A stretch of 64,000 nucleotides of DNA from positions 1,302,001 through 1,366,000 of the forward strand of contig NW_015622545.1 of assembly GCF_000835495.1 (NCBI RefSeq). Reading direction: 5' to 3'. This document shows positions 2,057 through 43,369 of this stretch, one piece after another. A program made the translations under genes and the position numbers. The stretch's first letter is position 1. The number at the start of each line of letters is the position of its first letter. The notes under the pieces were generated by a model. That model made no database searches, was not told the DNA's origin, and was given only the letters and a program-made list of their open reading frames with translations. The DNA is from Cladophialophora immunda (Eukaryota; Ascomycota; Eurotiomycetes; Chaetothyriales; Herpotrichiellaceae).

Positions 2057-4080
2057 TCCGCGACATATTCTCCAAGCACGACTTCCAAGCCGCCATTTGC
2101 ACCGCCGTCTCGAATGGTAGAGAGAGTCGATCGCGTTTCAGGGCGGTTGTCTTCTCCATCGGACATTTCATACTTGTCAATGTGGAGCTGATGTCCGTCA
2201 GTCACTCCAAGCGCCACAGTCTCTGGACAAGGTCCACACATGCTGTTGTTTGCTATTTCCACACGCACCGCCATAAACGGGCTGCCGAAGAAGCCATCAG
2301 GTATGGTGGTCCCGGTGACGCAGACCATTGGTGGCCACAAGTTCCGGGCACAGCTTCAAAACCCTGGCAGGCCTTTTTCTAGACAGAAACAGCCTCCACG
2401 AAGAAGAACACTTCATAGCCATCGGTCTACAGGCCCCAGCACATGCGAGTCTAGTCGTGGACAGGATGATGATGATGGTCGAGAAGCACATGGACGATCC
2501 CGCGGTGTACCAAGATCCGAACAAGTGGCTGTCACGTCCGATGCGTGTTTGCTGCTGGTCCGGGCAAGCAGCCTCTCCTCGACGTCGAGTCTGATTTCGC
2601 GCCGTTGCCGTAGGAGTCATGGCGACATTGCCGGCCTCCGGTGTTCGTCAGGAACAAAGACCATGCATGCCTGGCAACTTCTATCTCCCCAAAGCAATTC
2701 AAACGCATATGCCTACCGGACAAGGGGGTTCATGATCCAGACTGGACAGAGGAGTTCAAACATAAGGGGGTCAAGTAGGACCTGCTCAGGACCCTGCGGA
2801 TTTCGCCGGAGAGCCCGATCGTGTCCCACGCAACTGCGGTTCGCCGAGATCGACGCCATAGTCCGCAACCGACGGGTGCGCCACGCCAACCATGACGTTA
2901 CCGGCCCCTTCGACATAGCAGAGGTGGTGGACTGCTCTTCGATTGTGGCTGCGTTGCGGTGGGCGTGGGAGTGGCCGACGCGCGGAGCCCACCATCAACT
3001 GATCAGTTGGTGGCCCTGCATGCGTACCGCCTGGATTCGATATCGCCTGGATGTAAATGTTCTACGTAGACTTGTGGACGGCCGCCTCGCTGGCTAGGTC
3101 ACCTTTGGGCAGCACTTGGGCAGCGCTTGGGCGGTGCATCCGCAAGGCGCATCTCGAATTCAATCTCCAAAGCCTCCATCAGGGCCACCTGCTTGCTGTC
3201 TCACCATCATGCGCAGCTAGTACCTCGGAGATGGCTGGCGTGAGTGCAATACATAAGAGTCGGTGGGCCGCGTCCTACAAGCAAGCGGAAGGGGCGATAT
3301 ACCATACCCTCCGTCATCACCCTTCACTCTCCACCCATCTCCATGTGGCGAGTCAAGCCTAACAGTGCAAGCCGCGTCGCCGCCGAGTTTGGCACCGCTC
3401 ATCATCTCGACTTCATCAAGAGTTTCACACAGCGAGTGGCATAAAAGAAGGCCGCGGCCGAGGCGGGACCAGAGCGCCTCAACCCGGAAGCACACGTCGC
3501 CCTCCGTCAGCAGATTGCCCAGGTGTCTTACAGAGTGCCTGACTATGCCGCTACAGGATGGACGAGTAATCTTCAGGAGAACATCAAGACGTGGACCAAG
3601 TTCGTCGTAGGTCGAAGTGACCGCCCAGGCCATCCAGATCGGAGAGTGTGCAAGGCAGAGAATTCCCGGCGCTGGATCAAGATGCGGCTAAAGTTCTCCA
3701 TGGAAGCGAGGAACTGAAGGAACGAAGCCTGACGGAACCTGGGCGGCATCTGAAACGCCTAGGGGGGGCCTGTGGGGAGGCTGCAGTGACTCTGGCCGCC
3801 TGTGGTTGGAGGCTGCCCTTGGCCTCTTCCCCCCGTTCCGCGGACTTACCAAAACTATCAGGATTCCATCGTCAAGATGTCATCTATATCGCCTCATGTC
3901 AAATTGGCTTGTCTCCAGTCGACGTTGGCCCTCAATCGAACGGGGTCTAGATGAGATTGAATATAAAGTGCGGGTCCGTCTGGAAATGAATTCTCAATCT
4001 ATTTCGCAGCGAGCCCGTATTCACTCTGCAACTATCTGTTCAGTTGTCCAGCGAACGAACAAACGGCCGACTTCGCCCAC
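2057..4080. other. No recognisable gene
   Basis: Several overlapping ORFs up to 285 codons (2240-3097, +) exist, but their translations are S/R/P-rich and match no family I know. A plus-strand frame around 3343-3717 reads more like protein (helical, charged, one internal stop near 3441) but I cannot assign it. I see no tRNA, repeat or clear intron. Confidence 0.3.
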
Positions 4081-4087
4081 CCTTCGT

Positions 4088-5154
4088 TTACCATTCCACG
4101 AGTTTCCCCCCAGATGTCGGCATTCTAGTGTACTTTTTCTCTGTGCTAAGATGGCCGAAGTCGCAAATCATCCTCTCCTCCGACTCCTCCCCCTGCCATC
4201 TACTCCCCTCCTTTGCGAAGCGACAGTCCCAGACCCAATAAGACGATATGTTTCCCGCATATTGCTGCCACCAGACACCCATACAAGCTGCCACTACGAG
4301 GTCATACATCTTCAAACCCTCGCCATTGATAATGAGCTTGCCTAGCTTGGCACTGTGGCCTTTGAATCCACCTCCAGCCTTCTCCCGTTCAAGATCAAGG
4401 CTCATCCGAACCTGGTCACCCGGCTTGTCGAGCTGTGCTGGGTCCTCCATGGAGTCGGTGCTGTCACTGATCGAGAGCTGTTTTTGCGCTCTATGGGTAA
4501 AGGTCGAAAGCGCGGTAGATGATGCTCTTCACCATTGCTTGATCTGCGGGGGAGCCAGATGTGGGAGGATACTTGAGCACGTCCTCTAAATTTGGAAGAG
4601 TGGCCATGGTCTCGGGGCCGGAAAGACGTTCGCGGACAGCCCGGTTTATGGCGCCATTCAAAGACATGCCGTCAAGGGTTTCCAGGTCGTCCGGGAGTGC
4701 AGGTATGTTTGCCACATCGTCTTCTGTCTGCGGCTGGTCTCGAATGACCGTAGCAGGTTCGAGCTTCTTGAAGTCGAGCTTAATGTCTTTGTAAAGCACC
4801 TCGATCTCGAACTTCAGGTTCAATTTGAGCTCCGCAGAATAGTACAGTTCCAAGAGGACTCCCACTATTTCCATCTTTTGAGCCACAGCAGTTTTTGTCG
4901 TGGACTTTGTAATATCCCAGGAACTTCCAGAAGTCAAACAACAACCCGAAGATGTAAACCAGCGTATATGCGATCAGTGTGCAGCTGATGATGCCGGAAG
5001 CTGCGACTCCCATTCGAACGCCGAAGAGGTATAGTCCGTCGTACAGCTCCGCTTGCATAGCATCCCGCACTTGAAGAGATATCCAGAAGCTGAGTGAAGC
5101 TATGCTTACGTGAAACTTGAACAAGCTGGGTCTGGGGTCTGGTTGCGGCTGCAA
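4088..5154 (-). pseudogene. Decayed membrane-protein gene, family unknown
   Basis: Reading the minus strand from 5154, the first frame carries a clear hydrophobic helix, roughly residues 42-72 (GVRMGVAASGIISCTLIAY and onward to FWKFLGYY). Near 4900 the coding-like signal shifts to another frame (4937 to 4491). That frame has an amphipathic, charged C-terminal part containing LNLKFEIEVLYKDIKLDF, followed by a further frame (4450 to 4088) with EGLKMYDLVVAACMGVWW. Three consecutive pieces in different frames suggest either missed short introns or indels. I do not recognise the family. It lies just downstream of the homeodomain piece on the same strand, but nothing shows they are one gene. Confidence 0.35.
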
Positions 5155-15466: not shown

Positions 15467-16391
15467 CCTCGTGCCTCAAGAGCACCAGCGTGGTAGATGA
15501 AGGCACGGTCTTGACGGTAGAAAAGGGAGGGCTCATGTTTGGTCGGGCGGCAGCCCCCAGAATAGTCGTACCTAGGGCTCCCCTATCTATTTATACATGT
15601 CAGACTCTGCGTCGTTGCTATTTCTGTTTTCGAGATCGAGAGAGTCAGGCCTGCCTCGTCAATGCAGCCACCCCGCGACAACTGGAAAACTCTCTTCGCT
15701 GTTACCCCCTTGGACCGGTCACCATGGTCCATTGTACGGCACCGTTGGGATATCACATATCAGGCGACGGCACCGCCATGCAGGCTGGGACGTGCCAAGG
15801 AGGCAGGATCTCTTCCTGCAGGCTGAGCGCTTCGGCTTCGAGGTTGATGCAGCAGATCTACAAGAATCACATCCTGCAATGGCCGACACCAAGTCCATCA
15901 AGTTCTTCAAAAGTGATTTGACATTGTCCACCCGCGTTTAAACAAGTTAGTTAAAGCCATCCTTGACCGTGATCAGTCACCTGCTGAATAATGCCAATAT
16001 CCAGCTTCGAATTCTCGCTGTCCATTTCAACGTCAGTCACCATCAGCACGCCAGCTGTTCCCCTTGAGTTGTAGGCAGTTCATATGTGTATGTTGTAAAT
16101 GGAGCCACGACGGCCAGTGGACCCCCGGGTCTATCGTTACGGGAAATGTTTGTTCGGAAATTCCGTCTATTTGGCGTCGCCATGCACGAAAAGGCCCAGA
16201 AGTCCAGCGACGGGTTCTCGTGCCGTGTCTTAGGGGTCGAACGATTGGATCCATCCTGCTGGGACGTCGTCGCCGCAGTAGCAGCAGCAGGGGGAGGGGT
16301 GAGTTTGAACTCTGGGACCGTGATGGAGGGTCCGGGTGGCGTTTGATCAGCATCTAAGCTAACTTGGGACAAAAGGAACGCAACGATCCAG
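15467..16391. other. No recognisable gene
   Basis: Open frames on both strands up to 143 codons show no family likeness. One plus-strand stretch near 15820-15940 (ERFGFEVDAADLQESHPAM) reads like protein but is unassigned. The minus-strand frame 16402-16043 is Pro/Ala/Thr-rich. Confidence 0.2.
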
Positions 16392-16518
16392 TTGATGATC
16401 ATCCTAGGTCAATTGGTAGCCTCACTGGTCAACTTGGGCACCAAGGACTTTAAGAGCAACGCGGGCTGGCGGATCCCGGTCGGTCTTCAATTCATTCCTG
16501 CAGGATTTCTGGCACTTG
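16392..16518 (+). pseudogene. Sugar-transporter (MFS) fragment
   Basis: About 42 codons reading ILGQLVASLVNLGTKDF followed by GWRIPVGLQFIPAGFLAL. This is the segment of fungal sugar porters that runs from one membrane helix through the conserved WRIP-LQ motif into the next helix. The similarity stops abruptly at about 16520, where the opposite strand begins to encode an ankyrin-like piece. Only this short internal part of a roughly 500-residue transporter is present, so it cannot be functional. Confidence 0.65.
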
Positions 16519-16699
16519 TTTTGAACGACTTTTTGCTGCTGGGTACGGGGTCGTCGCCACTCTTGACGTCGTGCTCGTCGAACAATTTCTGTAAATCGGA
16601 CAGTCGACCAGCTTTGCATGCTTCCACCATCGCTTCCTGGTGAGGAGGGAGTTTACCGACTTGCTGTGGCTGTATAGGGGATGGAGGTGGCTGAGGCAT
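16519..16699 (-). pseudogene. Ankyrin-repeat protein N-terminal fragment
   Basis: From an ATG at 16699 the minus strand encodes a proline/glutamine-rich leader followed by MVEACKAGRLSDLQKLFDEH, the first helix pair of an ankyrin-type repeat. It then runs into KSGDDPVPSSKKSFKTS before meeting the antisense of the sugar-transporter piece. No second repeat follows. The rest of the parent gene is absent. Confidence 0.5.
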
Positions 16700-16957
16700 T
16701 GGTCGCCGAACGGAGAGTTGGCGGATACAAGTACATATCGGTTGAAGCGACGCCGGCGACAGACACCAGCAGAATCAACGTGGCGGGCAGATCGTTGTCC
16801 GCTGCATCACCGGGTCAGATGAACCCCTTGCCCAGAGGGAGCACTTACCAACTGATTTTAGACGCCTCATTCGAATCCAGGCTCCCGATGAAGGCCATGG
16901 AGAAGATGCGGATGGAGCTGCAGTGGTGAAAATCTTTGGCAAAGACCGGCCCACTGA

Positions 16958-17128
16958 GTCATCGAACTCAACGCCTCGGACGAACGAGGCCTCTCCGTGA
17001 TCAGAGAACGAGTCAAACAGTTCGCATCGCAACACCTGACACACCCTTTCTCGGATAAATACCGCAAGAAGTACCCATGCCCCAACTTCAAGGTGGTTTT
17101 GTTGGACGAGGCAGACCAGCTCACGCAG
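16958..17128 (+). pseudogene. Replication factor C small-subunit fragment (Rfc2/RFC4 type)
   Basis: Fifty-seven codons read [20 protein letters not shown], then [21 protein letters not shown]. This is the RFC box III-V stretch of the AAA+ clamp-loader subunits, including the Walker B DEAD. The YPCP insertion before the Walker B fits the Rfc2/RFC4-type subunit. Upstream, FGKDRPTE is in another frame and a TGA sits directly before the Val codon, so the piece is frameshifted at its 5' edge. The Walker A loop is absent. At the 3' edge it runs straight into a QCR10 fragment on the other strand. Confidence 0.8.
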
Positions 17129-17276
17129 GGTTGTCCTCCGGCGGCACCTCCCTGATCCAGTAGTTGCCGACGACGGGAAGCTTGGACAGAATATCTTGCC
17201 TCATGCAGGGAACTTCGCCGAAGGAAAAGACTGCAAAGACACCTGCCACAACGCCGAAACCCGAAGCAATATATCC
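17121..17276 (-). pseudogene. Cytochrome bc1 subunit 10 (QCR10) C-terminal fragment
   Basis: The minus strand encodes GFGVVAGVFAVFSFGEVP (membrane helix), RQDILSKLPVVGNYW and then [10 protein letters not shown] plus a stop. QCR10 proteins of the mitochondrial bc1 complex end in a helix, a D-IL-K-P-V(G)-Y stretch and PPEDNPF. Only the final Phe is replaced, exactly at the junction with the RFC piece. The N-terminal part of QCR10 is missing; upstream codons in the same frame are antisense of the PEX7 fragment. Confidence 0.7.
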
Positions 17277-17457
17277 TTGAGCGCTTCGGGATGACCCAAT
17301 CCGTGGATCAATCTCTGGGAGATGGCGATCGGTGCCACTCTGGACAAGATTTTCAGGCTGAGATTCGGCAGGCTGGGGGCTTTCTCCCGTCCCACCTTCT
17401 ATCGCGCTAATTATCGCATTGGACATCTCGTGCGGCGACAATCCCAATTGCCAAAAA

Positions 17458-17601
17458 CACTCGCAGGAAGCCTTCTCATGCAGCTGGAACCTCACGTCGA
17501 AGGCAACTTTTGCCTCATCATCCTGGGATGGGACAGTCAAGATATGGAGTCCGGAGCGGCAGCAGAGCCTGCTCACATTACCCACCCATTCCTGCACGTA
17601 C
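17458..17601 (+). pseudogene. PEX7 (peroxisomal targeting receptor) WD40 fragment
   Basis: Forty-five codons: HSQEAFSCSWN, FASSSWDGTVKIWSPER, LLTLPTHSCTY. This is one WD40 blade with the PEX7-specific continuation PER..SL.TL..HSCTY. PEX7 is the cytosolic receptor for PTS2 proteins and has six to seven blades; only one is here. Codons before and after lose similarity at once. Confidence 0.75.
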
Positions 17602-19059
17602 AGGACGAAGCTTGTTTGGCTGCTTTCTCTCGCCCCTGTTGTTCCTTGAACATACGTTCACAGTTCCTTAATTCGCGATCGAGGGTGTGGGGATCTTTCT
17701 CTTCTGGTTGAGCGGAAGCCGACATTGACTGTGTTGGTGCTGGCGTTACAGTGCCGCTGGAGCGATGGGACTGTAAGCGACCACCACTACCACTACTGCC
17801 ACTACTGCATGGCAGTGCCTGGGCTTTATGCTGCGTCCCGACTAAAAAAATTTGTTTGATCATCATTGTATTCACGTCTTTGTCTGGTTTGCTCCGCTAG
17901 ATCCCAGCAACGAAAGATGGAGAGCAATCTCGAGGTGGGTCCTCGCAGCCCATGCCTTCCCGCGCCACCTAATTCCAACCTCATCAAAGGAGGCAACCGA
18001 TCAGGAAAACGGTCCCCCAGTGGTCATCCGGTTCCGCCAGCTGGTCAGGTTGGTATTCGAGAGACGTCATCTGTCAGAATGGTCACAGAAGCTTGACTAC
18101 ACGGAATCCATAGAATTAAAGGGTGTAGGTTGCATGGAGGCCATATGAAGGGACAGAGTATCAGAGGAGACGCTCATATCTGTGCCACCAACGAGGGAGG
18201 CGTCTAACATAGCTGGTTGGAGACTGAAGGAATCCATTATGGGATGTGGTGGCGGTGGAGACGGTTCGTCCATATCCATTCGTTCTGCAATGTCCAAGAA
18301 ATCCCCGTCACCGTCGGTGTCCATTTCCTCGGCGTCATCCGTCACATCCGCGTCCCCTGCTTGTTCAGCCAGGAGATTCAAGCGATGCGGCGTGTCGATA
18401 TCCATTGCAGCGTATGGATTGAATGGCACGCAATGTAGTTAGTTATAGACTCCGGACAGGCGGAAATCCGCCTTTACGCGCGCACTTTGTGTCATCGTTT
18501 TGCAGCCCCGGGAGCCCATAAGTCCGGAGTCCAATTTGCTCCGGGAAGCTGTATGTGAAAGAGAAGGGATAGGGGACGTGGCACCTCTCTCGCTATGCCT
18601 TACCGACAGAATGCGTCTGCAACCACACAGTTTAGCAATGTGAAGGCCACCGGCAATGTGAAGGCGACCAATACGAGACTCGACGACTTGGATAACAGTT
18701 GTCGCCATAATCTTGAGCGTGATACTCATTCTCATATTCGTCATGGTGGAGCTCAGGGCCAAGGCAGTCCCTGTGATGCCAATGTCGATGCTGCATGGAA
18801 TTCTTGCCATATCGAATCAGATCAGTAATGTTTGCGTTGGTATCGCTATGCTGCGCAGCCGACGCCACCTCCCGCTCCACATCAAAGCACGGCAGCAATG
18901 CCAAATAAGCCCTCATCACAACATCCACATGCCGCGACCGCGATCCTGGACTATCCCACCTCGGACTTCGAGTCCACTTGGATGTGAGTTGCTCCGCCTC
19001 AAGGACAAGCTCGACGTGGCAACTAACAGGACCAGGTATCTCAACATCCCAACCTCCCC
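17602..19059. other. Unassigned part of the mosaic
   Basis: A minus-strand frame 18429-18097 (110 codons) begins MPFNPYAAMDIDTPHRL, is strongly acidic (EEMDTDGDGDF) and ends in a stop. It may be the N-terminal exon of an unknown protein. A minus-strand piece near 17720-17600 contains DRELRNCERMFKEQQGREKA, probably helical. Neither is assignable. Confidence 0.25.
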
Positions 19060-19161
19060 AAATCCTCTGTAACCTTGTTCGAGGCGAAGGCGCAAAAGGT
19101 GAGCTTTGAGGCCATTGGCAAGGAGATTGGCCGGGACGAGGTCGCGGTGGCAGCTCCCATC
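19060..19161 (+). pseudogene. Cyanate hydratase (cyanase) N-terminal fragment
   Basis: About 34 codons: [13 protein letters not shown], then [18 protein letters not shown]. This matches the helical N-terminal domain of fungal cyanases, enzymes that turn cyanate and bicarbonate into ammonia and CO2. One residue of the usual K(G)LSFE motif is missing. The catalytic C-terminal domain (Arg, Glu, Ser residues) is absent. A long minus-strand ORF covering this place is a shadow. Confidence 0.65.
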
Positions 19162-20602
19162 CTACGACCCACGCACTGGCTAGCCCGCAAGCGGCTTTTG
19201 CCACACGTTGTCTCTCCTCGTCAGGTGATTCCGATGGTACAGCACAGCTGCGTTGGTCCCTGGCTATTTTCCTGTTTTCGGACCACTTCAAGTCCGCGGA
19301 ACACCCTCGTCTCGGTTGGTCCCCCTGCCGCTCCTCGGTTGTCTCTGCCCTTATAACGTATCCCCAATCCGCCTCTGGTCCTGAAGTAACCCATACTCTT
19401 GTAGCTACCCCGATTTTGATATACCTTGTCGCAGAACGATCGTCCAGCGGGAAGATTCCGGTGAAGCGGCCATCACGTGGCAGCGGCAGTGGCGTTGAGC
19501 AGGAAAATTCCAAGATGGGACTTGACTTGGTATGGGAGAATAGGTACATACCGTAAAAAGAGCCGCAGTGGAGCGGCCTGATGGTCAATGCCATTGGGTT
19601 TATGGCCCAGGGATGTGGCCGACGCCCGGCTACAGAGAGAATGGGAAGAGAGGTAACCAAGGCTAGCCTGGGCAGGCTAGCAAAACTGAACGGGGCGTGA
19701 CACAATTGGCTCCCTAACGATCTGCATGTCGGTATACCGGGGGCCGCGCGCTGCCATTGGTTGTCAAATGATCACCATATTGTGCCCTGCAGACCAGGTT
19801 CCTGACACACATGACACGGTCAGACTGGAAAAGGTCTGCAATAGGCAACTCATGGGCCGCCGGAGTCCCTGCAGACCCCGAAAGTGCAGAACTGACGCAA
19901 ATTCAAAAAGGCCCAAAGGCCCAGGAGGCCCCACCCTCCAGGTTGCTGAAACCTGCGTCCTCAACCACCCAGATCACCAAACCCAGCCAGGAAACCCCCA
20001 AAAAAAAGCTCACTCGTCTTTCCCCTTTCCTAATCATTTCCATATAAACTCCTAGGAAACATGCTGCTGGACAGCCTCCTTGGGAATGACGCCCTGCGCC
20101 ACAAAGAATCACGGTAAGATTGTTTCATCATCGACGATAGCCAACTTGCTCTCGGTACTCTTCGTCGCGGTGCAGCTGCTCCCTCAACAGCTCAATCAAC
20201 GAGATGGAGCAAAATATCTGGGCTGCAACATCACAATCGATCAAATGGGCAACATCAGCATGACATAACGCTAGGACATTAATGACACAGCTCAATCCAG
20301 AACTCGGGGTCATCGGAGGCTGGCCTCAGAGCCTCGACGACCTTCTTAAGAGGTGTTCATCCCACTGTGAAGGCGTGGAGCGCAAGGCGCACATCTACGT
20401 GGAAATTTCATTCTTCGCCAAAGCGAGAATTAGCTCCGTCTACGCGAATGAGACTGCATTGCCCAAGACATATTCCAGCAGTCCGTCGTCAGATCGAGAG
20501 TGAGAAGGAGACGGAGAACGAGCAAGCTCAAGCAGAACTTTTCCGAGGTTGAACAATGGTCGATTGCGAATGTACGGCATCGGCTTGGGCTGTGGTGGTC
20601 TC
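19162..20602. other. Unassigned
   Basis: Open frames on both strands without family likeness. A homopurine run (cccccaaaaaaaagctc) lies near 19995. Nothing else is supported. Confidence 0.2.
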
Positions 20603-20953
20603 TCAGCAACTGCTTGCTGATGAATGGAAACATTGACGTCCGCTGGTTCGCTGCGACTGACGATACTCCTCTAGAACTCGGCTCAGGATTTTGCTGTACC
20701 GTTTGGCAACAAGCCAATTCTCCCCCATCTCAGCGAGGGTCGCCACGAAGAAGCTAATGTCGGGGTCCCTTTCTTTTCTCCTTGCACTCCTCAAAGAGAA
20801 TGGCAATGTCCGTTGTATATTCCTTCTAAAAATGCATATCGCCCTGTTTCCGGGTCCTCGATAAAGCCACATGTACCCGCCGCTCAGTGTCAATGTCACT
20901 AATGACGCTGAGTGGACTGCTAGCAGTGGTAGGCTCTTAATGGAAATTACCAT
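20603..20953 (-). pseudogene. Possible C-terminal piece of a fungal Zn-cluster regulator
   Basis: The minus-strand frame contains FFVATLAEMGENWLVAKRY and SKILSRVLEEYRQ. This resembles the terminal helices of Zn(2)Cys(6) regulators, where a tryptophan-containing helix precedes an aromatic-rich, amphipathic end. There is no DNA-binding domain nearby. The assignment rests on a short stretch and is tentative. Confidence 0.3.
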
Positions 20954-21560
20954 TCTCCTCGGGAGGATTTCGCACTATTAAAGACTGAGCGAAATCGACT
21001 AATCTCTGCTCAGTGGTGCCATTCTTCGTGGGCGACGAACGCTGTGACTGCAGTGAGATGACCTGGTTCTGGATTGCAAAAAGAGGCGTAGGGAAGCGAA
21101 GATGTATCCTTGACGCTTTTCCTTGGTCTAAAAGTGATATACCATACCCAAATTCGCCCCGGCGTATGTTCTGAATGCTATCTACGGATCCGCCGGCATC
21201 TGTTTCGGAATCTCATACGGCCTATTCGGGTCGCTTATAGCAGGTTTCAGAGTGTCTTCACTCCAACAAGTCACATCTTTCCCAAAGGTAGGACTGCCAG
21301 ACGGGTGTAATACTCCTTCTGTCAACGGTCTTGCAGGAGTCCCCTTTCTGCCTTTGTCTACGGTGTAGGAAAGGTGTGTGGGCTATATTCTTTGCGATAA
21401 AGAAATCCAAGCGGCCATCAATGCCGCTGAGCCTTTGCGTCAACAGCGAGAGGGAGACAGGCAGCCCGTGGCAGAGCCGCTCTGAGTTCGAAATTCGGTT
21501 CCTCGTGGGACGACGATTATTTCTTCGACAGTGATTGTGTCGACGCTGACCGCGATGGCA
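20954..21560. other. Unassigned; one hydrophobic plus-strand stretch
   Basis: Around 21150-21260 the plus strand reads LNAIYGSAGICFGISYGLFG and on to SLIAGF, a probable membrane-helix fragment of unknown origin. The rest shows no likeness. Confidence 0.2.
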
Positions 21561-21659
21561 TTCTGCCGGTGCTGCGACGACCTTCTCCGGTTCGATCTCG
21601 ACTAAATGCGCGTCCAACTCGTCCACCAGCCTCTGCACGAATTCCTCTTCGGTTTCCCC
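21561..21659 (-). pseudogene. Class-III aminotransferase fragment
   Basis: Thirty-three codons: GETEEEFVQRLVDELDAHLV, then EPEKVVAAPAE. In PLP-dependent class-III aminotransferases the motif E(S/T)..(E/D)YV..L..ELD..F...GP..V.AFVAE precedes the substrate loop. No PLP lysine region is present. Flanking codons are unrelated. Confidence 0.5.
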
Positions 21660-23425
21660 CCGTTGCGAAATGTCTCCCACGGATGTGATTACCGTTGGTC
21701 GGTGTTCCTCAACGGCTTTCACGGCTTCTGCAGTGTCTTCGTCACCGCGGCGTTCGCCTACACTGGAACTGAGCTGACCAGACTGGCTGCTGCGGAGACG
21801 GCCAACCCATAGTGCTGCAGATTGGGCTGGCGTACATCCCGCACGGCATCGGGATCATTGTCGGTGGCTACTGCGTTGGTCCTCGTTTGACTGTGGCAGC
21901 CCGGCGTTGAGAGCGCAAGTGTGGCCCAGTTCCTGCAGCTCGACACTATCGCGAATGGCGCAGACGAGAGCGCGGTCGCGACCCCCCATCACTGTCGCCG
22001 ACAAGAGATTGCGGTATGAGTTTAGAGAGCTCTAACGCCTACGCGGCGAAGGCTATATATCGTATCCTCTTCCGCCCGGACCACCACCAGGCGACCGGGC
22101 CCCATTCAACCCAATGACGTCTCAACCTCTTCTGAATTAACCACATCGCCTCAAAACCATGGACAACTACCATGAAACCTGGCACCGCTGGAGGGCTGCA
22201 CCACACCTTCGAAATTGCGTAGACTATCGACGCGTTGGCATTTGTGGCCGAAGATGCCTCGCAACATGTCCATCAGGGGGATATGGTGAGTTCGAGACGT
22301 GTCGAGATCGTATCCGTTGGTGCTGCTGGCACCGAGTTGGGGTCACCCATTTTGATATTCTTGTGTGGAGTCAGTTCCTCAGTCGGCCACAGCTTGAGTT
22401 CCTCCCCGTGCTGCGGACCCAGGCAATGCGATCGACAAGACAACAGGAATTCCAGAGGCAAAGAGTGCCAACTCAAGCAGTCATGGCACCGATTCAATCA
22501 GAATCAATCCGTGCACCCTCGATGCTGATTTGAGGTGCAGCACAAATCGCAGAGATGTCCGGTTTTCGCTTATCTCACGACATAGTCATTGCCTGTGCTC
22601 ATTTCACGGACTGAGATATCGCTGGAAACAATGTCGAAGTTTTCTTGAACGGGAAAAATGGTGTTTGCGAGGCGATTCAGGCGATTCTCAACGCTGCCTG
22701 TCAACTTGAAGGAATCATTGCCCTTGTCCCGGTCCCTGCGAGAACAGCTGCTGATGTCAATGAGATTTCTCAAGCCACCCGTTGCCGCCCGTGTTCCACG
22801 TCCCCAGCATTCGCCCGCTCTTCGACGCCGCCCTCCAGTGTCCGCCAGAACTGGCCTGTGTAAGCGGCAGATTTCAGCCACTCTCGGTGGTGTTGGTATG
22901 TCAATTGGCGTTGTCTTCGAGGTAAACAAACGCGGTGCCAACTTACGTCGAGGATTGCCGTCATATCGGGTTGAGGATCCGGAGAGCCGTCGCATACGAC
23001 TCCGGTGTCATCCGCCGACGCGAGGATCCCGCCCGAATAGGACGACTGGGGCGTCGTATGTGGCTACCAGGAGGTCGTGTTCGGCAGGCGCCCGACCACC
23101 TCTTATGAACAATTGCGTCCAGCGCAAACGACCTTGCCAAGGAACCTCAATCACACGGGCCGATGAGGCCAAGCTCAAGACCTGGCAATTTAGCAAATAC
23201 CAGAGCCATGGAGCTGGCAGTTTCCTTGCCACTATCGAAAATGATGGTGTGGTTCGCGAGGGCGTCGACGGGCGACATGTTGAGATTCTTCTTCAAGGCA
23301 GCCGGGAGCTTTTGTCACTGTACTGCGTTATGCTACATCGACTCTGGCTACACAATGTAAGCCACACACCAGTGATAGCATGTGCGACTCAATTCTGATT
23401 GCTACCAGGTGTTATGGAGCCGCGT
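21660..23425. other. Unassigned part of the mosaic
   Basis: Several ORFs occur (e.g. 22658-23398 +, 246 codons; 22995-22570 -, 141 codons) with arginine/serine-rich translations and no recognised motifs. They may hide further gene pieces too short or too diverged for me to name. Confidence 0.2.
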
Positions 23426-23494
23426 CTTGATGCAGGAGGCGGCACTGTTGATCTGATCACATACACCATCGTGTCGCTCAAGCCTACAATGGTC
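23426..23494 (+). pseudogene. Fungal Hsp70-like ATPase fragment
   Basis: The frame reads LDAGGGTVDLITYTIVSLKP. DAGGGTVDL is the second phosphate-binding motif of the actin-like ATPase fold of fungal Hsp70-related proteins; the following ITY.I.SL.P is typical of that fungal group. Only this strand-loop-strand segment is present. Confidence 0.6.
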
Positions 23495-23760
23495 GGAATC
23501 GAGCAGTTTGCCTCCACTTGTGCGTTTTCACAACCACAATATGAGCTCCTTGAACAAATAACAGTGATTGAAGAGGATCGACGTCAGTTCTTCTAACTGG
23601 GCGACATTGGTCCAAAGTTTGGTTATAAGTAGGCGACTCGCTTTGCGACGTCTTTGGCATGCGCATCGACTGACGAGGAAACCAAAGGTACCGTGGACAA
23701 TGGATCAAGCACAAGCCCCATTTTGCTATTGGCGACAAATATGCAGGCTCGTTTATGTTG

Positions 23761-23859
23761 CAGGACAGCATCCGTCGGGGGGGCTCTAACGCTGTCGAGT
23801 CGTTGAAGTCGCTTGGACTCGAATTGACCATACTGACAGGAGATGCCGAAAGTCCTGTT
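23761..23859 (+). pseudogene. P-type ATPase fragment, heavy-metal type likely
   Basis: The frame contains QDSIR, then AVESLKSLGLELTILTGDAE and a stop. D..R..A...V..L...G......LTGD is the hinge region of P-type ATPases where the phosphorylation domain meets the ATP site. The wording is closest to fungal copper/heavy-metal pumps. The DKTGT phosphorylation loop is not present. Confidence 0.5.
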
Positions 23860-23973
23860 CCTTAACCTGCCTATAGATGAACTCATGCTGCATTATAACC
23901 TGTCGATTTTGATGGTCACCCCAAGGAGCGCCGCGCCCGGGCAAAAGTGAGGGAACGGATGGCTGCCGCCGAG

Positions 23974-24048
23974 GGGACACCAGATCAGTATTATCTGGCT
24001 CCCTTTCTGCCAAGTCAACCGGATCTGAATTGGGCAAATGATGAGATT
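23974..24048 (+). pseudogene. Glycoside hydrolase family 13 (alpha-glucosidase) fragment
   Basis: About 25 codons: GTPDQYYLAPFLPSQPDLNW then ANDE. In fungal maltases the motif QYYLH.F...QPDLNWEN.. follows the first catalytic-barrel loop. The catalytic Asp and Glu regions are absent. Confidence 0.6.
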
Positions 24049-27000
24049 CCTAATCTGCAGCGGCTCGTTTTGCTTCAACATTGTGTGTTTTTTGCATCCT
24101 GGTTCTCTGGCATGGGCCATTCCAAAGCTCTGGTTGGATTTGTAGTTGAAATGGACTACTTGTATCTCATCTCATCCCCGTGCCCGTGACGAGAGCCCTG
24201 ATTAATTCCCTTTGCCGGTGCTGACGACTAAAGAACCACGCACTAGTACACTTGCGATGGATGCATGCAGCATTGTATCAGCTACAACTCGTGACGCTAG
24301 CTGCAGCTGGCTACTTGCCGCACATTTCCCAGGCCGCGGTTCGACATGCTGTGTGCGTTGCCCTCTGGCTTGGCTATATACTACTCGCCATGCATTCTCC
24401 AGTGGTCCCGCGAGAAGCCTGAGACTTGGTAGCCCTTGTCACCGGGCTCGGCTGGTGGGATTGGTATTGGATGCCAGACGTAAATGGAGAGGCGCACGTC
24501 TATGAAAGCCGTGAGCTAGCTCCCCTCACGCTTTTCCCAGCGCCTGTTCCCGGGGTGCTCGGTTCCGGGCTCCGCCTCGGCCCCTTCACCGCCACTGCGG
24601 ACGCAAATTAAAGTACGCCTAACGTGGAATCCGAAGCTGGCGATGCTAACAACACGGTCACCGCCGCAGCTGTCGGGGGTAGACGACGCGGAGGTGTCAA
24701 GGGAGGAGGATGCTGGCTATGACGGGTTGTTCGCGCTGCGAGACTCGCCGGTTGTGCCTGTCAACGGATGCCAGGTGAAAACTCTGCAGCAGGATTGCAA
24801 GACGCAGTCCTCCTTCTGAGCGTTCGTGGCAGCCGAAAGATGAGTCCTGGGCGAAATCGTGATGAAGAGGATGAGGGTTCTCTACGGAGCTGGAGGCACA
24901 GCAAACTGCGGATGAGAGTTTGCCACATCCTACCAGAATACGAGAAGGAGCGGCAAACCGGAGGCATTATTGCGAGAATGGTGCGAGGAGGGAGCGAGCT
25001 GAGGCCAGATGATGCATCACGTAATATCCAGCGAGCAGAACTTTTGCAAGGGTTTTCAGACGGGCGGCTCTGGGAATTTGTGGGTGGCTCCCAGCCGTTA
25101 AAAGAGACGCGGATCTTCCCAGAACCGGCAACACCGCCGCTAAGCGGATTAGATTGCGCCCAACCTAGCGTCAGCAAGCTTCATAGGGCACCGACGCATC
25201 TCTAGGCATGCAAGTCCGACGACGCGTGAGGTCCCAAGGATTCCGATTGATCCAGGCTTGCCGTCCACTCGGCCGCACAGGCAGCTCGTGTCGCACGGTA
25301 CCCGCCCCTAGGTCGCCACCCCGACAGACACATAAGCCCGGACACAGCTGGACGCCGCACAAGGACTATTTAACACTCAGGACTCCCTCATCTTTCCCCT
25401 TACCCCCCATCCCAATTCTTCTTTTCCTCACGCGCTCGAATGCCCCGCTCCGCATTGCGAGCTTTATGACGGATTCTCGCAGAGTGGAAGAGAGATGGTA
25501 GGGCACTACCGCTGGCGCTCGCCGGGCAGCATGTAATTGACCATACCCCAAGAGCACCGACTGCAACATCGACACCCCGGGCTGAAACGCTGCCTCCCCA
25601 AGAGGACTGGTCGACGGATGTGTCGAAGGTGAGCAAGACATGCCAAGATTGATCTACAGAAGCAACTGGCTGATGCTAGCATCCATGTGATGAGCAGGTA
25701 TTGAAAGCAGGATTGAGAGCAGGACAGTTCTGCCGAACAAGCAAAGCAATACGAAAACGAACGCGCCGCGCCGCCGACTAACACGCCAACCCCCCTTCCT
25801 CTCATGCACCTCGAACGGCGACGCTTTCCCAGAGCCAGATCAAGAATACAACACAGGGCCACTCCGACGACGAACAGGCAGATGCGTAAGCCAAAGACAG
25901 AAAGGGGGAGAAAAGAAGGATCCCCACGACTACGAAGACGACGACAGAGCGGTCTGCACCTCGGCTCCATGCACCCATCCACTTCAAACATGCCCGAGTC
26001 TACATGTCCTCCTCCAAAGACACCACGTTCTGCTGCCTGGCCCGCCAGTTGGCAGTGGGGAACCACCACCTATTGCGAGGGGCGGCTGGAGCAAGGGAGA
26101 AGGGCCGGATGAAGGCGGCGGGAGGGAGTGCGAAGCCCCCAGCGAAGTCGGTGTCGTCCGACTGCTGGTCGCAGTGGTGGTGGTGCTCGACAAACACCTC
26201 GACTCGGCTGCTGGGCGCGGATGGCGACCTATGCGGGGTTGGCTTGGCTGCACTACCAGATAGAGGGGACAGGGACATTGGATGTGGAGAGGGACAAGGG
26301 TGGGTGGGTCACCCACATGGCTGCACTGCATGAGATGATGGCCGAGGACGTGCGCTGACTGACACTACTGGCCTCACCTGGGCTTGGGTGTCTTGCTTAG
26401 GCGACGTGTGTGTGCTTGCCAGACGCGAAAGCGTTTCATGTGCATCCCCAAGCGAGATTACTAGTCCGGGATAGTCGGCCACCAGATAGCTTTAGCAAGA
26501 GACTCGTCTTCCTCGTGACCCATAGCTAATCTCCATATCATAAGTATAGATCAATTTGATAAGGACCAAGTCCCGGTCGAGGGTGTAATCGAGATGGGAA
26601 AACGAAGCCGAGTAGCAGACGGAGATGAGTCGAGAACGAGCACGGCCGGTGGTCAAAGATGTAGACTGTAGCCAGCGTTACAGAGGAAGCGGTCGCCCTA
26701 CCCTTGCCGCCGCTCGTCGGCAGCGGATCCGATAAGGACGGGGCCGTTGAGGAACTTTGCAAGGCGCTCGAGCATCCGATACGGGACATTATTGCGTGGG
26801 ATTTGGCGAGGCATGCGACATTCCATAAGGCTCACAAGATATGTCGTGAAGGGGTTTTCCGAACTCGGTAGGTCTCACCCTCCTCCTACCCGCCGCCCCC
26901 CTCCTTCCTCCCTCTTCTCTCTCTCTTCTCTCTCCCCATAGCACGGCTTCTTCTGCGGGCGCGACGGGTTCAATCCGCTTCGTACATTGCCAACTCTCGT

Positions 27001-28425
27001 CCCGACGGCGTGCTACGGAGCCACAACCCGAGGTCTGGGCGTTGTTCGGCTACTCTGGTTCTGCGATCCACATGCTTTGTGACCATCAGCAAATTCAAAG
27101 GTCTCCTCCGAAACCGTATTGAAAGTAGGGGACGAGGATGGCATACTCATTAAGGAAAGCAGGCCAGGACGATCATGATTTTCAGGTCATGCTAAGGGAA
27201 AAAAAGGACTAGCAGGACAGGACGATGAAAATTTAATCAAAATTCTGCGACTTTGCAAAGAAGGGAAAAAGGACCAGGTTCAGCTATCGAGAGAGTACCG
27301 CGAACTCGGGCCGTCCTCCCGAGCGCGCTGGCTACCATGACGGAATCCCTCCTCCAAGCTGACAGCAGCCTGCTCTTTACACTCGTCCACCATATTATTT
27401 CAATCTATACTGCTGCGTGCCGGGGCTGGGGCTTTTTTGATTCTTCATTTTTGTAGGGCTTCCCTATAAGCAACCGTCCCTTCCATTATTCTTGTCCATT
27501 CCTCGCCGTGTTGTAACAATCCTTGCGCTTATCGCTGACTGACCTCGACCTCGGCTGTATCTGCAAGTGCAATCAGAAAAGAGACGACTGACTGCTAGCG
27601 GATAGCAGTCTGGAATAGTAAACTGCGGTGTATATTGTGTACTAGAAGTCTGATATCACAAGTTACCAGCCTTGCCGGTATTTGGAGCTTCGAGGCTGAG
27701 CAAGGCTGTCCAAGTGCAGCCGCGAACTGCCACACTGCATGATATGCGAAGAAACCTCACAAGAATGTATTTACCCAACAAAACCAATGAGGCCTGGCCC
27801 AAAGATAGGCAGCACCCACGCCACCACTCAAAAGCGGCAGCGTAAGTTCTTTTCCGACTCTGCGGCTTGGAAGACCCTCTTGAATTCTTCTTGCACGCTC
27901 AGCCAGCTCGTTGCCAAATTCTTTCTGAGTCTCTGTGCTTTCTCCTCGCTGATGATGAGAGAGCGCATCGTATGGTGGCCATGGTCTATTCGCAGGGTGA
28001 TGTTGTTCGTCTGATCCTGGTGCATCGTCACCCAAGACCTGTCCCTAGCTCCTTTCAGTTTTGTTAACATTGTATTGTTTCATCATTTTCCATCGTAAGA
28101 TTGTTTGGTCCCAGCCAAGCTGTGACCTCCTTGGCATTCTGATAGATCGATCGCATCCTTTGAACCTGCTCGCTCTTCTCGCTATCGTTGGACTGGTCGA
28201 TACAGTTCCTTCGGCTGTGCAATTATATTGGGCGCTCGCTCAAGCATCTGATTAGCCTCTTTCTGAAGCTGTTGAGCCAGGGGCATGCTGCAACACCTAT
28301 ATCTCTTCGGCGCCCTCTTGGGGGTAGTCGCCAGCTATGCTTCGGCGTCATGCTCGCATCCTCCAGACTGCGCATCCACAGCACCGAGAAGCTTTGGAGA
28401 AAAAGTCCCCTGACCATCTCATCTT
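24049..28425. other. Long stretch without an assignable gene
   Basis: Two places look coding. First, a plus-strand exon near 26740-26867 (EHPIRDIIAWDLARHATF, then HKAHKICREGVF) ends at GTAGGT. It is followed by a pyrimidine-rich intron closing at CCCCATAG (about 26940) and a further open frame (HGFFCGRDGFNP). The family is unknown. Second, minus-strand frames at 26330-25366 have hydrophobic parts. Other ORFs (24768-25205 +) are unassigned. No repeats or RNA genes are seen. Confidence 0.3.
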
Positions 28426-28713
28426 CTATTCCTTCATCTCATCCTTCTCTTCGATAGTCCTTGCTTTGTTCAGATCAAGCTTGTTGCGTCCAGCGCCTAC
28501 CCCCGTCTCCTCGGTGACTGTATCAATCTCCATCATGGCGCCCAGTGAAGACACGAGTTCCTCTTCCGTCCAGTCACGATCAAAATCCTCACCCAAAAGC
28601 ATCCGGGATGCCCGTTCCGCACTCCTCAACGCTTCAATTTCGTCCTCTCTCAATGCCGAACACACCGCATGCAGTTTCCCAAGTTGGTCTGCCCACCCGC
28701 TCGGTCGCTGCAC
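28426..28713 (-). other. Helical open frame, unknown protein
   Basis: A 95-codon minus-strand frame with long helical, charged segments (ALREDEIEALRSAERASRML). Other charged minus-strand frames follow downstream (to about 27830, with SEEKAQRLRKNLATSWLSV). Together they could be exons of one alpha-helical protein. No motif identifies it. Confidence 0.3.
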
Positions 28714-28979
28714 TCCTCGAGTCTCTCTCGATCTGGACGAGGGGAGGCGTCTGCTTCAGTCACCGTGTCAATCTACAGATCATTGCCGCATGCACTGAAG
28801 TATACAAGGTGGCGGAAATCAACACTGATGGCTCGGTGACCTTGGCTGCAAACCAGCCTTGCGGAATCAAATCCTTTCTACTATGCAACATGCTTTCCTC
28901 TTGTGTATTCTAGCCGCCAGGGTTTGTTAAAGCGATGAGTGACATCAACCTGTACTAGATCCCGCTAGCATCGCAGAAG

Positions 28980-29106
28980 GTGATCCCCGTTTGCCCAACT
29001 CGTGCAGCATCTGGATGCCGCCAAACCCAGTTCCAATGACCAAGGCATCGTAAGCGACTCCCGCGTCGCCCGTCGTCTCAGAGGTGGTCAGATTGGTTGT
29101 TGACAT
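28980..29106 (-). pseudogene. Baeyer-Villiger/FAD monooxygenase N-terminal fragment
   Basis: From an ATG at 29106: MSTTNLTTSETTGDAG, then YDALVIGTGFGGIQMLHELG. This is the N-terminal FAD-binding Rossmann fingerprint G.G.GG of fungal Baeyer-Villiger-type monooxygenases (YDALVVGAGFGG...L). Similarity ends after KRG, before the expected FEA...GGTW region. An internal piece of the same family lies at 41.76 kb. Confidence 0.65.
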
Positions 29107-32100
29107 TGTCCCTGTTCTGCCAACAAAGAAATGCCGGAATGAAACGTTCGAAGACCTGACTGGTTCCTAGGCTGATGATTCTCTACGCTAGAGAAGAATG
29201 CCCTCGTTGCTGTCATATCAGGCCTCAAGCTGGTGGTCATCAAGTCACTAATGGTGGAGTCGAAGTGAGGGCCCTCTATCACGTCATGGTGTCGATATAT
29301 ATCCTGAACAATTGCAAGACCACACGAAGGCGCCTGTCGATTGCAGCAGCCATCTGCCCCCTGGTCACCAACAAACGAACCCTGAGCCTTCAGCCTCGAG
29401 TAGCTGCAGTAGGTCTAAACTTCGCCGAGTTCTTGTTGCATCGATATCTGTCCGGGCACTGAGCGAAATAGAAAACGTCACCACTTGGGCGGATTGTTGA
29501 TTGGGACAGCTCCTCAGCATCTGTTCCATTTTTCTTGGAGAGCTTGTGTAATCGAGACGGTCTGCTAATCGACTTCCCTCTGTTTGGTAGGTTGTCGGCA
29601 ACCTCCGAGCGGAAGGATCTGCTCTTTTTGCGGTTCGGGTCAGTAGCTCGCTTGCCTTGGCACACATGATCCAATCCACTGGCTACTTTCTGCAGACGTA
29701 TATGATGGTCTTGCTCTATTGGGCGGCAGTGAGTTCTTTCCTCACTTGGGTGTCTCGATTTCCAGGCCTTGCGCTGACTCTAGTTGACGACAGTGTTGTC
29801 CTCTTTACGGCGTCCCTTTGTTCCTGCCAACCATGCTTGAATGCTTTCCATTCGCTCGAGTCGAGTCAGTTGCTTTGACGAATTCTGGGGCATTCGAGTA
29901 TAGCAGGGAGCTTGAGGGCGTTGATACTTTCCAGGGTGGTTATGTTGGTCAGTCACATTGACACTCTTAGCGAAAGCATGTCTCTGTCGCACCTGGTCCA
30001 AAGCAAACACGTACTCTCATGCACCGCAAGCATTGAAGCCGACAATTAGCTTCTCCTTGTTCGATCTCCGGCCCTTCACACCTGCATAGGCCACACCGGC
30101 CGTCACAATCGGCCTCATCTACCTCATCATTATTGTGTTCTTCTCCTTCTCCTTTTTCCTCCCCATTATGCACAAGCAAAGTGGCGGTGGGTCTTATGCT
30201 GAACGCCCGACTGTCGGTGTACAAAGTTTTTGTTTTCTTTTTTTGCCTGGTTTCGGAGACCAACAGTTCGTCGGTACCTGATCCAAGGGGGCTCGCTGAA
30301 GAAAAAAGGTCGTGCCCATCAACTAGAAGCGTGGGGGAGGCTGGTGAAGCGAAACCAGCAACTGTTAGGCATCCTCGCATATGTGGCCGATCGAATCAAG
30401 ATGATGGAAGCGATTTGAGTTGGAGAGAAGATGCTGAGCTAGTTACGACTTGGCATAAAACTCCGATAGAGAAGACGCGATGTCAATTGAACTTCTGATA
30501 AAAAGCTGGCATTGGAGACTCGTTCGAGAGTCACAGAGTCGAGTTTTGAAATGACATCACCCCATGGTCAACTTGGGGGGGGGGGGGGGAGTTTCATGTT
30601 TTCTGATTCTCTCACTGTCATGTCTGCCCGAACAAGGGAAACACTCATTCGAAGGGAGATTGAGCGTAGACCCTCGGTGAACAATCTGTTCGATCCATAC
30701 GGCAAGGCTCATTCGGTGTTCAAACCCCATAGACTCTCTGGACCTCTTCCGAGGCCGAGTCCCAAGAGGCACCAGCTGCTCAGTCAAGCGAAGCTCCCAA
30801 GGAGTCCGAGGCGGCGCCTGCGCCCGAGTCTAGCACAGAGAAGGCTGAGTAAAGAGGATGTGTCCTTACTGGCCACGAAGTCCGTTGGCAAAGATATCAC
30901 CCGCGATTCTCTCCACAACGCCACATTCGCGGAAGTGACCTCGACATGCTACTGAGGATGGCCAAGGCCACGGTCTTATTTTGGTGGATCATATTTCTCC
31001 TTCCAAATCCTGGTGCTTTTCGGACGCCCGAATGTGAGTGGCTTGGTCTGTAGCTCCTGTGACGACGTTAGCAAACAAAATCCATCATCGAAGATCAAGG
31101 CTGACCGAAGATAGAAGCAGTTGATCGGAATATTCCTTTGGAGATTGGAGGGCAACCACATGCCGTTTAAAATGACTGCTATTTTCTTGCCGTGCTCTGC
31201 TGTTAAGATATAGACATGTCCCAGCGCTGCGAGCCTGAAATCGCTGACCCCTGGCCGACAGGGACATGAAGCAACTGATTGCCCGTTAAAGAGCGATCAC
31301 GGCGGTAGATGTACCTGATCATAATTGCTCAGGAGTGGCTAGCAAGCCGTCTGCTGTGGTGATTGGTACAAGGTGAGAAGTGGGAAACTGTGAAAACGAG
31401 TGTTGCTGCGATGTGTTGAGCGCATGCAAAGAATTCAACGAGAAGATGACGATTGAACTCAACACAGACTGCTCTCTTTCTCTCTCTCACGATTACCCGA
31501 CGCGGAGGACAGGCAGCTCTCTTCTGGTGGTGCTGCCACCTGCCCACCCCTTTTGCAAACGCGCCCACGGGGGGGTTTTCTCAGACCCGGGATCTCACGA
31601 CGTGAATGAGGAGAAGAACAAGTTGGGTTCTCTTGACCATGTCCCTTGCGACAGTTTCTGAAGTTCAGCTCTGATCGATTTCGGCAGCCGCTGGGGTGCT
31701 AGGGTTTCCGGGCTATGAGGCCGGAAGGAGTTACGATACCCTGGTATACTGCCACAATATGACGCCACTGCTCGTCAGGCCACCTGCCTTCCTCCTCGGT
31801 CAGAATTGCGTCGTGAAGCTCATGGCCTCGATCCACCATCTTTTCGGCCTTTCCGACTGCTTTCTCTTGCGAAGATCTGATGTCGATGGCCTGCCTGAAG
31901 CTTGAAAGCCTCGATACCTTCTCTTGCAGGCTGTTATCAAGACCGAGAAAGAAGTGAAGAGACTCCAAGACGACATCAAGTCCAAGATCTAGCACATGGG
32001 GGCTGATCAGATGAAGTCGTTGGAGGAAAGCCTCAATACCTTCCAAACCAGGCACAAAGTCAGTAGTAGCCGTGCGAAATCCCAGCCCGTGGACTTTGTT

Positions 32101-36342: not shown

Positions 36343-36605
36343 GCAAAGGCTCGCAACCATCCACCGCAGACTCAAATCCGTCCGCCACGGGCTCCCAACC
36401 GTCAGGCGCAAGGGCAGGCCCGGCGCTCGCTGTCCAGTCAAGTCAAGATCCGTCCTTCGCTCTGTTACGAAGAATACGGTCGTCCACTGCTCGGGATAGC
36501 CTTACACAAGCTTGGTCTCCGCTGCATCGTCAAATTTGTCGGGGCCTTTATCTTCCATATTGGGCACGGCACTTGTAGGTGTCTTGAATAATCACTGTCC
36601 GCCTG
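36343..36605. other. Gap between the RBR remnant and the next minus-strand frames
   Basis: Short, no feature seen. Confidence 0.3.
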
Positions 36606-41754: not shown

Positions 41755-41880
41755 CGAGTATGCAAGCAACAACGAAAAAGTGGAACTTGAATCGTGATAT
41801 CAAGTTCAAACACAGAGTTATCGAGGCTGTGTGGCAAGGGGAGAGCGGAAAATGGAAAGTCATCATTCAGAACCGGATGG
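41755..41880 (+). pseudogene. Baeyer-Villiger/FAD monooxygenase internal fragment
   Basis: The frame reads ATTKKWNLNRDIKFKHRVIE then AVWQGESGKWKVIIQN. In fungal Baeyer-Villiger-type monooxygenases, Y..H.F.LRKDI.F...V..A.W....GKW.V precedes the NADPH-binding domain. Similarity stops at a short (ggatg)n slip-like run near 41880. It could come from the same parent family as the N-terminal piece at 29.0 kb. Confidence 0.65.
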
Positions 41881-43177: not shown

Positions 43178-43369
43178 TTACCATGGCGAGATAATGGCAG
43201 CCGCCGGCGGTACGTTGTCGTTAACTGCGCGGAGGAATTGAGCGCCCACGATGACGTTGACAGAAGACCAGCCGAGACACGCCAAACAATTGAAAAGAGC
43301 GATGATTTTGACCCGAGGCCAGATCTCAAACCGCCAGCGGGAGCGGTATGTGTTGCCTGCCGTTCGAAG
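43178..43369 (-). pseudogene. NCS1 nucleobase permease (purine-cytosine permease type) fragment
   Basis: The frame contains RTAGNTYRSRWRFEIWPRVK, then IIALFNCLACLGWSSVNVIV, GAQFLRAVNDNVPPAAAI. This matches the segment G.RTM...R...G..GA...A..N...C.GW..VN.I.GAQ.L..V of fungal FCY2-like permeases, one of the most conserved parts of the family (12-helix symporters for cytosine and purines). The remaining helices are missing; upstream codons are unrelated. Confidence 0.7.

What the first reader, a model, noticed from the sequence alone, without database searches (positions are those of the whole stretch)
16392..24048. Dense mosaic of short pieces from at least ten unrelated genes
In 7.7 kb, on both strands, I read about 70-210 bp segments of a sugar transporter, ankyrin protein, RFC subunit, QCR10, PEX7, cyanase, class-III aminotransferase, Hsp70-like protein, P-type ATPase and GH13. 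Each starts and stops abruptly inside a domain. They share no pathway and are normally unlinked genes. The same pattern continues more loosely over the rest of the window (monooxygenase, NCS1, acyl-CoA dehydrogenase, CK2, amine oxidase, acyl-CoA ligase, ubiquitin). A process that captures and splices small gene fragments, or error-prone repair that fills breaks with random genomic templates, would give this. It is not the usual look of a fungal pseudogene region.
Basis: partly seen in the sequence, partly recalled or inferred. Interest (0 to 1): 0.88.

Follow-up and report, generated by a model that had tools for sequence, protein, structure and literature searches.

The report
Fungal chromosome stitched from genome shards
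A stretch of one chromosome of a black fungus is made of about two hundred short copies of sequence taken from all over its genome and joined end to end, an old, decayed scar of DNA repair resembling events studied in yeast assays and damaged human cells.

Summary
Searched against its own 42.2-Mb genome (Cladophialophora immunda), the window yields 214 alignment rows (roughly 200 pieces; 29-432 bp, median 125) from all eight large contigs, both strands, abutting in seven blocks that span 33.2 kb. Parents exist elsewhere. Two further C5 stretches are built alike; one C7 control is not. An assembly chimera is very unlikely: copies differ from parents by about 5.4% substitutions, almost even over codon positions (167/158/201), as expected of old, unconstrained copies of this genome's own sequence. 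Junctions show excess microhomology. Divergence is similar between blocks, which suggests one main burst; one piece shared with another mosaic implies an older mosaic template. In two blocks 28 of 33 closed pieces are 136-207 bp (mean 169, SD 15.5), nucleosome-sized. Best reading: a chromoanasynthesis-like burst that inserted short genomic fragments at breaks in an unusual region of C5. Whether the fragments were pre-formed or copied by serial template switching is unresolved, roughly 55:45. The type of event is known; the fixation in a fungal chromosome, piece number and size ruler look new.

The parts
3540..4875 (.). Block A: 6 abutting pieces from C4, C2, C2, C7, C4, C7 (64-374 bp)
   Evidence: 99.6% covered
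15598..19156 (.). Block B1: pieces mostly 136-187 bp from C1, C2, C4-C8; 12 pieces closed on both sides
20029..24082 (.). Block B2: shorter pieces (median about 100 bp); stretch 19157-20028 before it has no assigned parent
27350..32090 (.). Block C: 31 pieces; 17 of 21 closed pieces are 156-207 bp, the other four 33-66 bp; strongest microhomology
   Evidence: 94.0% covered
36419..37391 (.). Block D: 8 rows from six contigs
40887..51451 (.). Block E: 72 rows from eight contigs; E1 to 44.59 kb short pieces, E2 wider sizes; ends at an AT-rich repeat
55500..57284 (.). Block F: 9 rows; its left limit is set by where my query began
58685..64000 (.). Block G: 24 rows, lower identity (mean 89%), mixed with repeats and nested insertions; runs to the window's end
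18082..18244 (+). Piece from C1:5431647-5431802, also present with the same two ends at C5:1664590-1664750
30160..30364 (+). Piece from C1:5431822-5432028, 19 bp from the parent of the piece at 18089
16956..17129 (-). Piece of a replication factor C subunit gene (C7:1732501-1732674)
16350..16516 (-). Piece of a sugar transporter gene (C7:2357304-2357470)

Best explanation
The blocks are scars of a burst of chromosome repair on C5 in an ancestor of this fungus. Shown: about 200 short pieces of the fungus's own nuclear genome, taken without visible preference for coding sequence or base composition, lie head to tail at one region in random order and orientation, joined with a few bases of shared sequence, while the parents remain in place; the pieces have since decayed without constraint to about 5% substitutions, to a similar degree in every block. 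Inferred: breaks in this region of C5 took up short genomic DNA fragments, joined to one another by microhomology-assisted end joining. In blocks B1 and C the fragments look pre-formed with a size ruler of about 169 bp, as expected of mononucleosomal DNA from degraded nuclei or of unligated Okazaki-sized DNA. In E1 the sizes are broad and the microhomology weaker, so copying or another fragment pool may have contributed there.
For: Own-genome mapping (tally). Contig use fits contig size (chi-square p 0.29, all pieces of three mosaics) and neighbours share a contig no more often than expected (22 of 160, expected 22.2). Parents not enriched for coding or G+C. Codon positions 167/158/201 in 67 coding pieces of 166; 39/44/49 in 18 pieces with long parent ORFs. 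Substitution rates 4.3-6.3% per block for A-F, between-group chi-square 13.6 on 8 df. Microhomology above a blunt-join simulation: mean overlap 1.72 over 119 junctions against 1.14 over 1,610 simulated, p 5.6e-5; exact run 2.19 against 1.11 over the 99 junctions without a gap. Size ruler in B1 and C: 28 of 33 closed pieces 136-207 bp, CV 0.09, against CV 0.39 in E1. One 163-bp unit with the same two ends occurs in two mosaics beside different neighbours.
Against: The dinucleotide periodicity expected of nucleosomal DNA was not significant in 43 parents (p 0.15 and 0.24). The size ruler holds in two blocks only. Substitution rates within some blocks vary more than one age allows (B1 p 0.006, C p 0.005, D p 0.0006, E1 p 0.005), so later additions or older templates are mixed in. 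Block G is older or more disturbed. The figure is biased upwards because junctions with unassigned bases (20 of 119) were left out. The unit with shared ends is one case. Human chromoanasynthesis by template switching gives similar piece sizes and junctions (PMC13065848).
Confidence: 0.5

Rival explanations
1. Serial template switching: a broken end primes synthesis at a microhomology, copies 30-300 bases, dissociates and anneals elsewhere, many times over (microhomology-mediated break-induced replication, chromoanasynthesis). No free fragments are needed.
For: Parents are intact; junction microhomology; non-overlapping neighbouring parents as in the human hotspots (PMC13065848 passages); the copies carry more substitutions than the parents' third-position excess accounts for (about 4.8% against about 1.1%), which could partly be error-prone synthesis; broad sizes in E1 and E2.
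Against: Narrow 169-bp size class in B1 and C; one unit with identical ends in two mosaics; no case found of one parent stretch copied twice in overlapping pieces within the window, although about 0.2 would be expected by chance, so this absence says little.
Confidence: 0.38
2. Slow accretion: single short insertions at breaks over a long time, nested in one another, in a region where nothing selects against them.
For: Within-block overdispersion of divergence; nested pieces in block G; a shared piece whose template was already diverged.
Against: Similar mean divergence from A to F; blocks are closed chains of abutting pieces rather than interrupted ones; parents split by later insertions are seen only in block G.
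Confidence: 0.1
3. Assembly or library chimera.
For: Long reads could not be examined, and the sequencing method is unknown to me.
Against: A chimera would be about 100% identical to its parents. Here 5.4% substitutions (1,216 of 22,433) fall almost evenly on the three codon positions, and a decayed piece is shared with another site.
Confidence: 0.02

Closest known systems
Human chromoanasynthesis by mitotic MM-BIR (PMC13065848; abstract, outline and passages seen)
   Same: Dozens of short insertions from many chromosomes joined in one molecule (their complex 111: 109 insertions from 18 chromosomes, 21-245 bp, median 77); insert medians of 155-234 bp in fibroblasts; microhomology of 2-3 bp; neighbouring non-overlapping source hotspots.
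   Different: Theirs are somatic telomere-fusion molecules in cell culture; 64 of 109 insertions came from 19 hotspots, whereas here sources are nearly all scattered. Here the product is fixed in a fungal chromosome, decayed, and comprises about 200 pieces in 64 kb with more outside. The role of Pol theta shown there was not tested here.
Distant templated insertions at breaks in budding yeast (PMC11724301, PMC10802722; passages seen)
   Same: Copy-paste of nuclear DNA from all over the genome into breaks; preferred inserts about 45-300 bp; NHEJ-type microhomology; paired adjacent pieces from one locus in rtt105 mutants.
   Different: Complex events there hold mostly two to four fragments and come preferentially from fragile or repetitive sites; here chains run to tens of pieces with no source preference seen for coding or G+C.
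Complex NUMTs (mosaic organelle DNA in nuclear chromosomes; passages in PMC10802722)
   Same: Several fragments joined end to end at a break.
   Different: Here the source is the nuclear genome; organelle sequence was not searched for.
Gene-fragment capture by Helitrons or Pack-MULEs (recalled, no call)
   Same: Fragments of unrelated genes brought together.
   Different: No transposon frame around the blocks was seen in the searches made; pieces include non-coding DNA and abut without spacer. Terminal structures were not searched for specifically.

Membership tests
Chromoanasynthesis / MMBIR product | Many short templated insertions from several chromosomes in one place | tested here: met
   214 rows from eight contigs
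Chromoanasynthesis / MMBIR product | Copy, not move: sources remain in place | tested here: met
   Each mapped piece has its parent elsewhere in the same assembly
Chromoanasynthesis / MMBIR product | Microhomology at junctions above chance | tested here: met
   (p 5.6e-5); by block strong in C and B1, near the null in E1, D, F
Chromoanasynthesis / MMBIR product | Repeated overlapping copying of the same locus | tested here: not met
   Not seen in the window; four pairs of neighbouring, non-overlapping sources within 121 bp. Uninformative at this sampling.
Chromoanasynthesis / MMBIR product | Polymerase and ligase dependence | not testable with these tools
   Needs experiments
Capture of nucleosome-sized DNA | Narrow size class near the nucleosome repeat | tested here: met
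   B1 and C only: 28 of 33 closed pieces, mean 169, SD 15.5
Capture of nucleosome-sized DNA | Ten-base dinucleotide phasing in the sources | tested here: inconclusive
   p 0.15 and 0.24 with 43 sources
Capture of nucleosome-sized DNA | Fragment ends at nucleosome borders of the sources | not testable with these tools
   No chromatin map of this fungus on hand
Transposon-borne gene capture | Terminal repeats or other transposon frame around the captured pieces | not tested
   Only noted that block E ends at an AT-rich repeat
Assembly chimera | Pieces identical to their sources | tested here: not met
   5.4% substitutions, near-even over codon positions

The most novel reading that the evidence does not exclude
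A large part of C5, perhaps most of the stretch between about 0.8 and 1.7 Mb, is a genomic landfill: a region that repeatedly receives nucleosome-sized fragments of the fungus's own degraded nuclear DNA, shed for instance when nuclei are destroyed after hyphal fusion, and stitches them into the chromosome, with older landfill serving as source for newer. The size ruler then records chromatin structure in the DNA sequence itself.
Probability: 0.25. Interest if true: 0.93.

Novelty: new variant of a known kind. Interest (0 to 1): 0.82.

Why it matters
Complex templated insertions are studied as events of minutes in mutant yeast or damaged human cells. Here is an inherited record with about 200 parents known to the base, old enough to show its decay and young enough to map its junctions. 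It allows direct tests of how such chains form: size ruler, microhomology, source preference, errors on copying. It also shows a way in which a fungal chromosome can gain tens of kilobases of non-repetitive, gene-like sequence that annotation may mistake for genes.

Tried and rejected
Artefact: rejected by neutral divergence. Foreign or relative's DNA: differences would concentrate at third codon positions; they do not. Reverse-transcribed RNA: not favoured, because many parents are non-coding and coding is not enriched; spliced introns were not checked piece by piece. RIP as the cause of the differences: C-to-T in CpA context 4.6% against 5.0% in CpG, and mosaic blocks lack the RIP index seen in the AT-rich repeat. 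End motif of sources: only a mild G+C rise at the first bases inside the ends, which microhomology could cause. Ten-base periodicity: inconclusive. Trace of the mosaic in other species through an ORF lying in it (18632-19705): none of 2,435 candidates reached E 0.001; weak, since such an ORF need not be annotated elsewhere. Rfam and tRNA scans of the window: nothing. Plasmid collection: nothing. Literature: searches listed no paper whose title or abstract start describes such a mosaic in a fungus; the C. immunda genome paper PMC5595782 has no occurrence of mosaic, duplicat or fragment in its main text. Only open-licence papers are held, so this is no proof of absence.

Rows dropped before counting: 49 of 263 (39 hits on C5:0.77-1.71 Mb, 6 at the AT-rich repeat, 2 in the first 500 bases, 2 near-duplicates). 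Of the 214 kept, 5 lie more than half inside another row, and several parents are split into two or three rows. Sequence was in hand for 166 of them after removing overlaps; the parents of block G, most of F and the 16 pieces were not fetched.
Full report
What is there. The window is C5:1302001-1366000 of a 42.2-Mb genome in 39 contigs. A 349-aa ORF at 7473-8522 is identical to a protein named PV07_08728 of Cladophialophora immunda on a contig of 4,609,732 bp, the length of C5, so the organism is that black yeast.

Nine searches of the window against its own genome gave 263 rows that I tabulated, of which 214 remain after removing 39 hits on C5:0.77-1.71 Mb, 6 at an AT-rich repeat, 2 in the first 500 bases and 2 near-duplicates. 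They are 29-432 bp long (median 125; 171 of 214 are 60-210 bp), 74-100% identical (median 94), 104 on the plus and 110 on the minus strand, and come from C1-C8 (45, 40, 39, 37, 15, 12, 21 and 5). 154 of 213 neighbouring rows lie within 13 bp of each other. They form seven blocks that span 33,201 bases, 27,439 of them covered. Coverage is a lower bound: searches scored 40 of 69, 43, 68, 56 and 49 candidates, and 53001-55499 was not searched.

Controls. In 9000-15597 and 24083-27349 no piece was found with all candidates scored. A 3,162-bp stretch of C7 around one parent matched only itself and the window. Two further C5 stretches are mosaics: 901 bp at 1.664 Mb with 8 pieces from four contigs, 92% covered, and 3,051 bp at 1.423 Mb with 25 rows from eight contigs, 81% covered (10 of 10 and 40 of 45 candidates scored). 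Both were chosen because they match the window, so they do not measure how common mosaics are on C5, and one control stretch does not exclude them elsewhere.

Old copies of the own genome. In 166 alignments with sequence in hand, 67 lie in one clearly longest open frame of the parent; substitutions fall 167, 158 and 201 on codon positions 1, 2 and 3. With 18 pieces inside long parent ORFs it is 39, 44 and 49. Genes under constraint, or gene pieces from a relative, would differ mainly at position 3. The copies therefore decayed freely. The excess at position 3 (about 38 of roughly 3,365 sites, 1.1%) is what the parents contributed, against about 4.8% on the copies. That the copies changed more than the parents is an inference from a small excess (test of evenness p 0.053) and could reflect codon constraint in parents, a high mutation rate in this region, or errors at copying.

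One main burst, with an older layer. Substitution rates of blocks A-F are 4.3-6.3% and differ little between groups (chi-square 13.6, 8 df), but vary more within B1, C, D and E1 than sampling allows. One reason is visible: the piece at 18082-18244 also lies at C5:1664590-1664750 with the same right end and the same 7 bases at the left that the parent on C1 lacks. The two share six differences from C1, one of which would be a stop codon in the C1 gene (PAS and GATA domains), and have 7 and 9 private ones. So a decayed copy existed first, and was then used in two mosaics with the same ends.

Junctions and sizes. Over 119 junctions the mean overlap is 1.72 bases against 1.14 in a simulation of blunt joins with 5.5% mutation (p 5.6e-5). 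Among the 99 without unassigned bases the longest run shared by both parents averages 2.19, against 1.11 when one parent is shifted; this choice of junctions favours high values. Block C has 3.25, B1 2.46, E1 1.56; C and B1 exceed E1 (p 4e-4). Pieces closed on both sides in B1 and C are 136-207 bp in 28 of 33 cases (mean 169.3, SD 15.5), the other five 33-66 bp; E1 is broad (mean 108, SD 42). I defined B1, B2, C and so on after seeing the map, so the contrast between blocks is not a planned test.

Sources. Contig use fits contig size (p 0.29). Of 44 parents of 100 bp or more in long loci, 24 lie in an open frame of 150 codons or more, against 57% of random stretches of the same loci; G+C is the same in parents and flanks. 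Four pairs of parents used in different places lie 19-120 bp apart; 2,000 simulations of 198 random parents gave a mean of 0.59 pairs within 500 bp, 99.9th percentile 4. Two of these pairs include a weak match (84% over 67 bp; 74% over 93 bp). Beyond 500 bp I saw no excess.

Mechanism. Random sources left in place, random order and orientation, and microhomology are the marks of chromoanasynthesis. In human cells such chains arise by template switching with Pol theta and Pol delta, with inserts of 21-245 bp in the most complex case, and non-overlapping source hotspots (PMC13065848, abstract and passages). In yeast, DNA of about 45-300 bp is captured at breaks by end joining, mostly one to four pieces (PMC10802722, PMC11724301, passages). 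The narrow 169-bp class and the unit with fixed ends favour pre-formed fragments for B1 and C. Mononucleosomal DNA is the obvious candidate; Okazaki fragments are another, since in yeast they are sized by the nucleosome repeat (PMC6393292, passage). Periodicity in the sources did not confirm nucleosomes. I therefore hold fragment capture only slightly above template switching.

Novelty. The kind of event is known. A fixed, decayed example of this size in a fungus was not found in my literature searches, which cover open-licence papers and of which I saw titles and the starts of abstracts.

Noticed in passing
51452-54800: AT-rich stretch (34.6% GC, TpA/ApT 1.44, (CpA+TpG)/(ApC+GpT) 0.48) with copies on C1, C3, C5, C6 and C8: a repeat with the signature of RIP, which the neighbouring mosaic lacks.
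   Followed up: partly
62144-62856: Parent C3:5479561-5479715 appears in three parts interrupted by a C6:1927055 piece and a C3:5016166 piece, the latter flanked by a 5-base duplication of the parent: nested insertions, possibly a small transposon.
   Followed up: no
32385-33781 and 59687-60015: Short diverged repeats (66-97% identity) found only on C5 between 0.8 and 1.7 Mb, several copies; they mark this part of C5 as unusual.
   Followed up: no
7473-8522: ORF with the middle HEAT region of proteasome activator PSME4/Blm10; only one other homologue in 5.8 billion proteins at E 0.001, CLAIMM_15098 of the same species, 63% identical.
   Followed up: partly
37538-38266: ORF with an HNH_2 endonuclease domain (E 6.5e-12), between mosaic blocks.
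   Followed up: no
11432-12289: Protein kinase ORF matching the kinase profile only from position 72, so without its N-terminal part in this reading.
   Followed up: no
L069:1120-1371: A piece with a C4 parent (91%) has several relatives on C5 (0.98, 1.00, 1.05, 1.70 Mb; 85-94%): a mosaic piece that seems to have multiplied within C5.
   Followed up: no
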